A stretch of DNA of 64,000 bases from Verrucomicrobiota bacterium (GTDB lineage: Bacteria; Verrucomicrobiota; Verrucomicrobiia; Chthoniobacterales; Terrimicrobiaceae). Positions 54,679 to 56,905 of this stretch are shown in pieces. The stretch covers positions 19,654-83,653 of the forward strand of contig JAPLTG010000006.1 in assembly GCA_026398255.1 (NCBI GenBank), written 5' to 3'. Numbering within the stretch: position 1 is the first letter of the stretch; each line of letters begins with the position of its first letter. Below the pieces are notes generated by a model. That model had not been told where the DNA came from. It saw nothing but the letters and a program-made list of their open reading frames with translations, and ran no database searches. Both the position numbers and the translations under genes were made by a program.

Positions 54679-54985
54679 ATGAGGCCTCCATTTTTGGCTG
54701 TGCGCTTCGACTGGGATGCGGAAAAAAAACGAGTGGTTGAAAAAAGAGCGGAATATCTCTTTTGAAGATATCGCTATGCTGCTGGCAGTCGGGCAGCTTT
54801 GGAAAACAGCCGCGCATCCGAACCCAAAGAAAAATCCCAACCAACGGGTTTTTCTCGTGCCTGTTGATGGATACATTTTTTTAGTCCCCTTTGTGATTGA
54901 GGACGATACGGTTTTTCTCAAAACCGCCTTTCCCCACCGAAAAGCAACCCGCGACTATTTGAAGGAAATCAATGAAAACAAATAA
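54679..54985 (+). CDS. BrnT/DUF497-like toxin, frame interrupted in an A8 run
   Basis: The protein-like sequence spans two frames. The first (ATG 54679 or GTG 54700) gives RFDWDAEK; the second, from within the A8 run at 54722-54729, gives NEWLKKERNISFEDIAM, HPNPKKNPNQRVFLVPVDGY, FLVPFVIEDDTVFLKTAFPH and RKATRDYL. Joined, it matches the small WD-x2-KNEWLKKxRGISFED type toxin family related to BrnT, RNases that are neutralised by a ribbon-helix-helix antitoxin, here the next gene. One fewer A (A7) restores the frame. Either the base is an error, transcription slips on A8, or the toxin starts at ATG 54716 (89 aa) lacking the first strand. Overlaps the antitoxin gene by 14 bases. Confidence 0.75.
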
Positions 54986-55244
54986 GGAAGAAAAACAACT
55001 CGCAGATGCCTACGATGATGGGACCCTCCAAGTGGAGTCGCCATCGCATGATCTCTTGGCGCTTCTCGCCAAGGCAGGGGAGAACACATTCAAGAAAGAC
55101 AAGCGGATCAACATCCGTTTGAGTAGTCACGACTTGATCGGAATCCAGCGCAGAGCCGCCAGAAAAGGAGTTCCTTACCAAGCGCTTATCTCGGGGTTGA
55201 TCCACCAATATGTCGAGGGGGATCTTCTGGAAGCGACGAAGTAA
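54972..55244 (+). CDS. Antitoxin of the BrnT-like toxin (CopG/RHH-type)
   Basis: 90 aa. The C-terminal half reads as a ribbon-helix-helix DNA-binding domain: KRINIRLSSHDLIGIQRRAARKG, then PYQALISGLIHQYVEGDL. The N-terminal acidic part (KQLADAYDDGTLQVES) probably wraps the toxin. BrnA-type antitoxins repress their own operon and the order toxin-then-antitoxin seen here is the BrnTA order. The gene begins 14 bases before the toxin stop, in another frame. Confidence 0.83.
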   Translation: MKTNKEEKQLADAYDDGTLQVESPSHDLLALLAKAGENTFKKDKRINIRLSSHDLIGIQRRAARKGVPYQALISGLIHQYVEGDLLEATK

Positions 55245-55347
55245 AATCAAATCCTCCCTATGCACCGAGCTAGCCGGAATCGTTCCGAACTCGTTTTGGT
55301 TCGGATTCGCGTTTGACATCCTTGCCTGTGTGCCAATCGTGAGGGGC

Positions 55348-56298
55348 ATGTTGCGACTCGTCATTTTCCTTTTTCTTCTTTGCGCCGGCCTCGCGCCTTT
55401 GAGCGCCCAATCTCCGGCGATTCCGGAATTCAAGTCACGCCTGCCAATGAGCGTGGTTTTCAAAGGCAGCGAAAAGTTCGACCGACTTGTAAAGCGGGCG
55501 AAGAAAGAAAATTGGGCGGCGCTCCCGATCGGTGAGCGCACGGCCGCTGTCGGCAAGGCTCTCCTTGGGACGCCGTATGTGAATTACACCCTCGAAATCG
55601 ATGACCGAATCGAGTCGGCCTCGGTGAATTTCAACGGACTGGATTGTTGGACCTTCTACGAAATCTCTCTGGCCTTCGCACGGATGCTGCAAGCGAAGGA
55701 TGGCGATTATCGGCCCGAGGATTTGCTGGCGCTTGTGGAGCTGGAGCGCTACCGCAACGGAAAGTGCGATGGCGGCTACTTGTCGCGCATGCATTTTCTC
55801 GAAGAGGTCTTTGCTGACAACGGCGCGCGTGGTCTCTCGGTGAATCCGACAAAGGAACTCGGCGGCGAGCGCCTCTCGCGCCAAATCCGCGAGATGACCG
55901 CGATGTGGAAAAGTTACCGCTACCTCCGCAATGACCCATCCCAGCTTCCCGAGATGGCGCGCATCCAAGAGAAAGTTTCCACCCTGCCGGTTTATCATAT
56001 TCCCAAAAACCGTGTGGCCTCCATCGAGCGTCACCTCCGCACCGGTGACATCATCGCGATCACTTGCAAATACCCCGGCGCCTACACTTCGCATGTCGGC
56101 ATCGCGGTAAAAAAGCCCGACGGAGTCTGGTTCATGCACGCGACATCGAAACGCGACAAGGGCCGGAAAGTCATCCTCGATTGCCGCATCTCAGACTACC
56201 TCAAGCGTTCTGACGAAAACTACGGCATCGTTGTCTATCGCCCGCTGGATTTGCCGAAATCGCTTGATGTCGCGATGGAGAAAAACTCGGGGCGGTAA
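55348..56298 (+). CDS. Exported DUF1460 amidase-like protein (NlpC/P60-related)
   Basis: 316 aa from ATG 55348, preceded by GAGGGG as ribosome site. A signal peptide (LRLVIFLFLLCAGLAPLSAQ) leads to a DUF1460 (PF07313) domain, whose known members are N-acetylmuramoyl-L-alanine amidase-like cysteine hydrolases of murein fragments. The catalytic Cys is likely in FNGLDCWTFYEISL and the His in YTSHVGIAVKKPDG, with LLGTPYVNYTLE ahead of them. The C-terminal residues (MEKNSGR) are encoded by a 24-bp sequence that recurs 520 bases downstream, beyond hicBA: see that finding. Confidence 0.82.
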   Translation: MLRLVIFLFLLCAGLAPLSAQSPAIPEFKSRLPMSVVFKGSEKFDRLVKRAKKENWAALPIGERTAAVGKALLGTPYVNYTLEIDDRIESASVNFNGLDCWTFYEISLAFARMLQAKDGDYRPEDLLALVELERYRNGKCDGGYLSRMHFLEEVFADNGARGLSVNPTKELGGERLSRQIREMTAMWKSYRYLRNDPSQLPEMARIQEKVSTLPVYHIPKNRVASIERHLRTGDIIAITCKYPGAYTSHVGIAVKKPDGVWFMHATSKRDKGRKVILDCRISDYLKRSDENYGIVVYRPLDLPKSLDVAMEKNSGR

Positions 56299-56299
56299 A
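56276..56299. repeat. Direct repeat, left copy, flanking hicBA
   Basis: 24 bases (begins TGGAGAAAAACTCGG, ends TAAA) identical to 56796-56819 except for one base (G at 56295, T at 56815). This copy encodes the end and stop codon of the DUF1460 gene. The offset between copies is exactly 520 bases and the interval contains only hicBA. Confidence 0.9.
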
Positions 56300-56320
56300 G
56301 CCTATGCGGAAATTGCCGTG

Positions 56321-56545
56321 TCAGCGTTGTGCAATGAATTCATCGACCGTTAGGTCAATGTCCCTTGCAATCTGACGAAGGAGCGGTGCGGCAATGTCGC
56401 GGCCTTTGTGTATTGGAACAGTTGTGCAGCGGCCATCGGAATGTCGGTATTGGATGTGTGATCCGCGCTGTCGGACATTGACAAAATCGAGCTTTTCCAG
56501 AGTTCGGCAAACTTCGCTTGGCTTCAGGATGGGGGTGTTGCCCAT
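56321..56545 (-). CDS. hicA: HicA-type toxin
   Basis: 74 aa. HicA mRNA interferase with a double-stranded RNA-binding-like fold. Typical features: PSEVCRTLEKLDFVNVRQRGSH (helix plus the G-S-H catalytic His motif), IQYRHSDGRCTTVPIHKGRDI and LLRQIARDIDLTVDEF. It lies three bases downstream of hicB, so the order is antitoxin first. Transcribed opposite to the DUF1460 gene and in the direction of it. Confidence 0.93.
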   Translation of the reverse strand: MGNTPILKPSEVCRTLEKLDFVNVRQRGSHIQYRHSDGRCTTVPIHKGRDIAAPLLRQIARDIDLTVDEFIAQR

Positions 56546-56548
56546 TAT

Positions 56549-56758
56549 TTAGGCGACGGCAAGGTTTTGGGTGCCGACAAATTCAGCATCCATGCGAGGT
56601 TCTCCATCTTCGAGGAGCATCTCGATGACCTCACGAAGGTTGGCGTTTAATTCGTCCAGCGACTCGGCTTGCGAGTGAGCTCCGCAAAATCCCGGCACAT
56701 AACCAACTAGTAAACCTGTGGCGGGATCACGCTCCACGACGGCCGTAAAATTTCTCAT
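56549..56758 (-). CDS. hicB: HicB-type antitoxin
   Basis: About 69 aa from ATG 56758 (TTG 56791 would add 11). Partial RNase H-like HicB fold: FTAVVERDPATGLLVGYVPG, HSQAESLDELNANLREVIEMLLED. There is no C-terminal DNA-binding domain, as in the short HicB class. It neutralises HicA, encoded three bases downstream. The pair lies between two 24-bp direct repeats. Confidence 0.9.
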   Translation of the reverse strand: MRNFTAVVERDPATGLLVGYVPGFCGAHSQAESLDELNANLREVIEMLLEDGEPRMDAEFVGTQNLAVA

Positions 56759-56795
56759 GCCTAACTTTTTCACGGTCGCTTCAAGAGTCAACCCT

Positions 56796-56819
56796 TGGAG
56801 AAAAACTCGGGGCGTTAAA
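56796..56819. repeat. Direct repeat, right copy, flanking hicBA
   Basis: Second copy of the 24-bp sequence at 56276-56299 with one mismatch. It contains the same terminal codons and TAA as the end of the DUF1460 gene, but no upstream reading frame, and is followed at once by the dispersed palindromic repeat, as would be expected of the original gene end. Confidence 0.9.
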
Positions 56820-56820
56820 A

Positions 56821-56904
56821 GGCTCCGACGGAGCGTCGCCCTCCAGATGAACCTTGGAGGGATGGGCTCTGTCCCGTCCCAAGATTCAGGCGCGAAGCGC
56901 CATT
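56821..56904. repeat. Dispersed palindromic repeat, copy 2
   Basis: Contains GGCTCCGACGGAGC, then CGCCCTCCA, CTTGGAGGGATGGGCTC with TGTCCCGTCCCAAG, and GGCGC-GAA-GCGCC (56889-56901). It shares its modules with the copy at 25941-26003. The final hairpin ends five bases before the dsbD stop codon (minus strand), so it could terminate dsbD. Confidence 0.5.
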
Positions 56905-56905
56905 G

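What the first reader, a model, noticed from the sequence alone, without database searches (positions are those of the whole stretch)
56276..56819. hicBA cassette inserted at a gene end, with the gene's 3' end duplicated
hicBA lies exactly between two 24-bp direct repeats with one mismatch, 520 bases apart. The left copy supplies the last codons and stop of the DUF1460 gene; the right copy carries the same codons without a gene and is followed by the palindromic repeat seen after other genes. This looks like insertion of a 520-bp toxin-antitoxin unit that rebuilds its target's 3' end, as integrative elements do with tRNA genes, but with no integrase inside the unit.
Basis: seen in the sequence. 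Interest (0 to 1): 0.7.

Follow-up and report, generated by a model that had tools for sequence, protein, structure and literature searches.

The report
hicBA inserted with gene-end duplication
A two-gene toxin-antitoxin unit (hicBA) sits between two copies of the last 24 bases of the neighbouring gene, while a close relative has one copy and no unit; the unit was likely inserted without an enzyme of its own, in an event that would leave gene-end fragments as scars, and hicBA units in related bacteria lie between direct repeats, some of them gene ends, more often than control sites do.

Summary
A 24-bp repeat (one mismatch, found nowhere else in the genome) brackets hicBA: HicA passes its Pfam cutoff, HicB is a weak match. 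A close relative (G015) is an empty site: one copy, identical to the right-hand one, running straight into the same palindromic repeat. Of 82 HicA loci tested from the same order, 15 lie in units of at most 650 bp bounded by direct repeats (0 of 82 inverted; 3 of 181 intergenic controls, one of which proved to be this genome's second hicBA; 1 of 30 ParE; 0 of 30 cold-shock genes). In the six tightest cases the repeat is a gene 3' end four times, a 5' end once, intergenic once. One locus is an array: squalene-synthase-like gene, PIN-toxin unit, copy of the gene end, hicBA, another copy. Repeat lengths vary (24 to about 150 bp), targets differ, and the units hold no integrase: the tRNA-type reading is not supported. 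I favour one homologous crossover in the neighbour gene plus one illegitimate join, leaving a stub of the resident gene end; 'insertion with long target duplication', described for restriction-modification genes, is the main rival. New variant of a known kind; the mechanism is inferred.

The parts
55348..56298 (+). AmiA-like (DUF1460, PF07313) gene whose 3' end is duplicated
   Evidence: Pfam E 2.2e-29 on the ORF 55210-56298; ATG at 55348 chosen because a signal-peptide-like start follows (read from the sequence)
56276..56299 (+). left 24-bp copy: last codons, stop and one base of the AmiA-like gene (GCGGTAAA form)
56321..56545 (-). hicA toxin gene (74 aa)
   Evidence: PF07927 E 1e-17; absent from the orthologous place in G015
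56549..56791 (-). hicB antitoxin gene, single-domain (80 aa from TTG; an ATG start at 56758 is also possible)
   Evidence: PF15919 E 7e-4, below cutoff
56796..56819 (+). right 24-bp copy without a gene (GCGTTAAA form, identical to the single copy in G015)
56817..56905 (+). palindromic interspersed repeat, present with a few changes at the same place in G015, so probably older than the insertion
55441..56795 (.). inferred imported tract: donor allele of most of the gene plus hicBA
   Evidence: window against G015: no mismatch in 55348-55440 (93 bp), 107 mismatches in 55441-56295 (855 bp) (Fisher p 1.6e-5); 4-fold-site divergence of the gene 0.355; inference
54716..55244 (+). BrnT-BrnA-like toxin-antitoxin pair upstream, also absent from G015 but without flanking repeats (separate event)
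   Evidence: PF12441 E 8e-6, just below its cutoff, for the second gene, none for the first; BrnA model E 2e-4, far below its cutoff; 643 bp in the window against 56 bp in G015; no repeat

Best explanation
hicBA sits between two copies of its neighbour gene's last 24 bases where a close relative has one copy and no unit, and it likely arrived as a fragment that carried hicBA joined to a donor's version of that gene, entering by one homologous crossover inside the gene and one illegitimate join near the gene's end, so that the right-hand 24 bases would be the resident gene's leftover stub. Shown: both copies, the empty site, the uneven (mosaic-like) divergence of the gene, and the excess of repeat-bounded hicBA units in the order. 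Inferred: the donor, the crossover, the illegitimate join, and that repeat length simply records how far from the gene end the join fell (joins beyond the gene end would leave no repeat). Such scars would let later units add on, as in the gene - PIN unit - gene end - hicBA - gene end array in G117.
For: Empty site in G015 with one copy equal to the right, gene-less copy. Gene against G015: 0 mismatches in 93 bp, then 107 in 855 bp, the last of them inside the repeat; the aligned flanks are 96.4% and 94.1% identical; 4-fold-site divergence 0.355 against 0.106 and 0.149 in the two flanking genes. Variable repeat length and target genes; no shared ends seen in six units. Only a minority of hicBA loci have tight repeats (15 of 82), as expected if the second join can fall inside or outside the gene. 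Gene-end stubs decay: G028 orphan of residues 348-405 with two stops; G116 orphan of residues 263-311. No carrier seen: HicA relatives in 0 of 50,697 phage records, none confirmed in viral contigs, 3 of 72,556 plasmid records. Precedent: homology-facilitated illegitimate recombination in three competent species, and 109-950-bp gene-end duplications by single crossover in E. coli (PMC3240628, passages); a like model for toxin-immunity arrays in Vibrio cholerae (PMC5361080, passages).
Against: Only one informative base lies in the 24-mer. The gene's synonymous divergence is in the upper tail, not unique: 6 of the other 47 reading frames compared reach 0.337 or more (the gene's own value in that call), some of the 47 probably not real genes; the other regions aligned with G015 are mostly 88-91% identical, so it may be the flanks that are unusually alike. 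In G081 the gene copy and orphan share 25 changes against a relative, with 2 and 3 private ones, and in G116 4 shared, 2 and 7 private: duplication inside the lineage, which fits this model only if the donor was close kin. In L061 the repeat is a gene 5' end, in L139b intergenic. A second G000 insertion (about 3.2 kb, 27-29-bp repeats) looks more like a target duplication. Donor sequence, uptake genes and end-joining genes were not looked for.
Confidence: 0.45

Rival explanations
1. Insertion with long target duplication: hicBA enters at a staggered break that is filled in and ligated, duplicating 24 to about 150 bp of target, as described for restriction-modification genes.
For: Direct repeats with a single-copy empty site; variable lengths of the order of 100 bp in other loci; shared changes of both copies in G081; second G000 insertion with 27-29-bp repeats present once in G015; published for R-M systems (PMC3874152 and PMC1643837 passages; Nobusato 2000 seen only as cited).
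Against: Most hicBA loci tested have no tight repeat (67 of 82; old ones may have decayed); the uneven divergence of the window gene is unexplained; in the six tightest cases the two copies are 73-96% identical, none 100%.
Confidence: 0.3
2. The repeated gene end came first, or hicBA is old here, and G015 lost it by recombination between the 24-bp copies.
For: A precise deletion between repeats would leave exactly the G015 arrangement.
Against: It only moves the question of how the duplication arose; the gene's orthologues in G013, G011 and G007 have no hicBA nearby and no straddling repeat over 10 nt, though their downstream neighbour differs, so they are not clean outgroups.
Confidence: 0.15
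3. Site-specific integration at gene 3' ends by an integrase acting in trans, like tRNA-type elements or integron cassettes.
For: Four of six tight cases sit at a gene 3' end; array in G117.
Against: No common core, repeat length or target; no further gene and no shared ends seen in the units; a 5'-end case. Integrases elsewhere in the genomes were not searched for.
Confidence: 0.06
4. Chance repeat or assembly artefact.
For: Most genomes compared are fragmented assemblies of many contigs and could be misassembled.
Against: 24-mer unique to the site; collinear empty site in another assembly; excess over inverted, intergenic, ParE and cold-shock controls.
Confidence: 0.03

Closest known systems
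Insertion with long target duplication of restriction-modification genes (Nobusato et al. 2000, cited in PMC1643837, PMC3874152, PMC3031569)
   Same: Addictive two-component unit without a transposase, long and variable direct repeats of target, single-copy empty site in a close relative
   Different: Cargo is hicBA (about 500 bp), not R-M genes; four of six tight cases at gene 3' ends; uneven divergence of the neighbour gene in the window
Homology-facilitated illegitimate recombination (PMC3240628)
   Same: One homologous side, one illegitimate side; gene-end duplications of 109-950 bp were obtained in E. coli by a related single crossover
   Different: Laboratory reaction with engineered DNA; here inferred from sequence only
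Sequential displacement arrays of T6SS effector-immunity modules (PMC5361080)
   Same: Successive toxin units added behind a shared gene, old parts left behind as orphans
   Different: There the retained parts are immunity genes; here they are fragments of an ordinary gene's end between complete toxin-antitoxin units
tRNA-type integrative elements
   Same: Gene 3' end kept intact after insertion
   Different: No integrase in the unit, no fixed core, several different targets

Membership tests
HicAB toxin-antitoxin | HicA toxin domain | tested here: met
   PF07927 E 1e-17
HicAB toxin-antitoxin | HicB antitoxin adjacent | tested here: inconclusive
   PF15919 E 7e-4, under the curated cutoff; position and size fit
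HicAB toxin-antitoxin | toxicity neutralised by partner | not testable with these tools
   needs expression
Insertion with long target duplication (R-M type) | direct repeats of target flank the unit, single copy in an empty relative | tested here: met
Insertion with long target duplication (R-M type) | repeat of the order of 100 bp, variable | tested here: met
   24 bp in the window, 107-153 bp in the five other tight units
Insertion with long target duplication (R-M type) | cargo is a restriction-modification system | tested here: not met
   cargo is hicBA
Homology-facilitated illegitimate recombination | homologous anchor with a donor allele on one side | tested here: inconclusive
   uneven divergence of the gene, but its level is not unique in the genome
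Homology-facilitated illegitimate recombination | illegitimate junction on the other side | tested here: inconclusive
   junction at 56795/56796; donor flank unknown
tRNA-type integrative element | integrase gene in the element | tested here: not met
   no gene besides hicBA in the 496-bp unit
tRNA-type integrative element | fixed attachment core and target | tested here: not met
   different genes and repeat lengths
Transposon or MITE | terminal inverted repeats | tested here: not met
   ends of six tight units compared by eye; no inverted repeat (E up to 1e-4) bounding a unit of up to 650 bp at 82 hicA loci, one in a larger span
Integron gene cassette | attC site and nearby integron integrase | not tested
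   no attC or IntI model was run

The most novel reading that the evidence does not exclude
In these bacteria the ends of ordinary genes work as integrase-free landing pads for toxin-antitoxin units: each arrival leaves another copy of the gene end, the copies supply homology for the next arrival or for exchange between cells, and integron-like arrays build up (squalene-synthase-like gene - PIN-toxin unit - gene end - hicBA - gene end in G117).
Probability: 0.2. Interest if true: 0.8.

Novelty: new variant of a known kind. Interest (0 to 1): 0.5.

Why it matters
How small chromosomal toxin-antitoxin units move when they are not on a plasmid, phage or transposon is an open question. A review that I read in passages (PMC3874152) describes element-free movement with long target duplications for some R-M systems; the passages I saw give no such case for toxin-antitoxin units. 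A repeat-bounded class of hicBA, with a matched empty site and a recognisable scar (a gene-end fragment), makes the question testable by comparing close strains and by transformation assays in laboratory strains.

Tried and rejected
tRNA-type integration: rejected for lack of an integrase in the unit, of a core and of a fixed target. Common interspersed repeat: rejected for the window, but kept in mind for other loci: the repeats at G011, G010 and G000's second hicBA share short stretches, so not every repeat-bounded hicBA is a gene-end case. Upstream BrnTA-like pair as a second example: no repeats; three ParE-type loci of G000: none either. A clear outlier status of the gene's divergence: weakened. 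L069 as a clean case: G028 has nine matches to that transporter protein, so its orphan could be a decayed tandem paralogue. L139b: repeat intergenic, two different hicBA in tandem; G089 has one. G118 as a clean empty site for L093: one gene-end copy and no hicBA, but other sequence lies there. G159 for L061: single copy, no match to the L061 HicB, but only about 82% DNA identity. Nine of the 14 control hits were looked at by eye; several are repeats inside genes, and whether others hide toxin-antitoxin genes was not tested. Counting all insertions between G000 and G015: only about 59 kb could be aligned.

Full report
OBSERVATION. The 24-bp repeats are at 56276-56299 and 56796-56819 with one mismatch and a spacing of 520. 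The pattern is found, within three mismatches, only there in the 2.60-Mb genome assembly. Between the copies lie only hicA (56321-56545, PF07927, E 1e-17) and a HicB-like gene (56549-56791, PF15919, E 7e-4, under its cutoff), both on the minus strand; the gene that supplies the left copy is AmiA-like, PF07313.

EMPTY SITE. G015, a genome of the same genus, keeps the aligned flanks at 96.4% and 94.1% DNA identity and has one copy of the 24-mer followed directly by the palindromic repeat and the dsbD-like gene. That copy equals the right, gene-less copy of the window. No HicA or HicB relative is encoded there. The upstream BrnTA-like pair is also missing from G015 (56 bp in place of 643) but has no repeats.

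HOW COMMON. I listed 83 HicA sites in the order from two searches; one (L068) had too little flank, so 82 were tested. They are the sites that I had fetched, mostly the better-scoring ones, not all matches, whose list was itself cut. Ungapped repeats straddling hicA with score 18 or more: 17 of 82 direct, 0 of 82 inverted, 0 of 82 reversed; 24 of 712 control windows (windows 400 bp apart, so flanks overlap). With gapped alignment, E at most 1e-4 and a unit of at most 650 bp: HicA 15 of 82 direct and 0 of 82 inverted; ParE 1 of 30; cold-shock genes 0 of 30; windows 14 of 712. Without the size limit: HicA 23 of 82 direct and 1 of 82 inverted, ParE 4 of 30, windows 35 of 712. Intergenic control: 3 of 181, Fisher p 3e-6. 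One of those three turned out to be the second hicBA of this very genome (HicA E 2.8e-10; its partner has no Pfam match), between 183-bp repeats that are 92% identical. Against ParE the difference is small (p 0.036) and ParE is itself a toxin family, so specificity to HicA is not shown. Sites from one genome or genus are not fully independent, and the thresholds were chosen after first looks.

WHAT IS DUPLICATED. Six tight units (460-573 bp, essentially hicBA alone): window, AmiA-like 3' end, 24 bp; L093 (G116), 3' end of a DeoC-family gene, about 150 bp at 91%; L147 (G117), 3' end of a squalene/phytoene-synthase gene, 107 bp at 92%; L069 (G028), 3' end of a solute-binding-protein gene, 153 bp at 73%, orphan with two stops; L061 (G081), 5' end of a gene with a weak peptidase match, 121 bp at 94%; L139b (G094), intergenic, next to the start of an unnamed gene. 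The other repeat-bounded loci have weaker or looser repeats, and some lie between what look like interspersed repeats.

ARRAY. In G117 the synthase gene end is followed by a unit with a PIN-domain toxin (E 2.8e-16) and a small upstream frame without Pfam match, then a second copy of the gene end, then hicBA, then a third copy. Further orphan copies of that gene end lie on other contigs of G118 and G116.

MECHANISM. Against G015 the AmiA-like gene diverges unevenly: 0 mismatches in 55348-55440 (93 bp), then 107 in 55441-56295 (855 bp) (p 1.6e-5). Its 4-fold-site divergence is 0.355, against 0.106 and 0.149 in the two flanking genes. This suggests that a donor allele came in with hicBA and that the right copy is the resident's leftover. 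It is moderate evidence: 6 of the other 47 reading frames compared reach 0.337 or more, the other longer alignments with G015 are mostly 88-91% identical, and the 24-mer holds a single informative base. In G081 and G116 both copies come from the same lineage (shared changes 25 and 4; private to gene copy 2 and 2; private to orphan 3 and 7), which fits target duplication or a close-kin donor. Among three insertions of 250 bp to 4 kb seen in about 59 kb of G000-G015 alignment, two have 24-29-bp repeats present once in G015 (hicBA, and a 3.2-kb insertion with a Sel1-repeat gene), the third (the BrnTA-like pair) none.

CARRIER. HicA relatives are abundant in the protein database of genomes and metagenomes (1195 at E up to 0.001 among 1211 candidates, best 92% identity), found in 3 of 72,556 plasmid records, and not found in 50,697 phage records or in the viral contigs at the sensitivity used.

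LITERATURE. Read in passages: PMC3874152, PMC3031569, PMC1643837, PMC2654758, PMC3240628, PMC5361080. Nobusato 2000 and Furuta 2010 were seen only as cited; PMC2853133 is not held. Searches for TA or hicAB with target duplication, direct repeats or homology-facilitated illegitimate recombination (lists of 20 of 176, 19 of 19, 15 of 21, 8 of 8, 1 of 1, 0 and 5 of 5) showed no paper whose title or abstract start reports this pattern for hicBA; subscription journals are mostly not held, so this is no proof of novelty.

Noticed in passing
window 54716-55244: BrnT-BrnA-like pair upstream of the same gene, also missing from G015, without flanking repeats: two toxin-antitoxin-like pairs flank one gene.
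   Followed up: partly
L280:7609-8482 (G000 contig C26:47609-48482): Second hicBA of the genome lies between 183-bp direct repeats, 92% identical, with only short fragments elsewhere in the 879 kb of the genome examined.
   Followed up: partly
L282:10975-14240 (G000 contig C26): About 3.2-kb insertion (Sel1-repeat gene and a 154-aa frame without Pfam match) near a gene's 3' end, bounded by 27-29-bp repeats; the compared part of G015 has one copy.
   Followed up: partly
L147:2439-3977: Array of a PIN-toxin unit and hicBA separated by copies of a squalene-synthase-like gene end; more orphan copies in G118 contig C11 (L243) and G116 contig C158 (L244).
   Followed up: partly
L124:8880-8947: Third copy of the peptidase-like gene's 5' end in G081, beyond the next gene.
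   Followed up: no
window 56817-56905: Palindromic interspersed repeat with partial copies in the genome, three within about 400 bp on contig C22.
   Followed up: no
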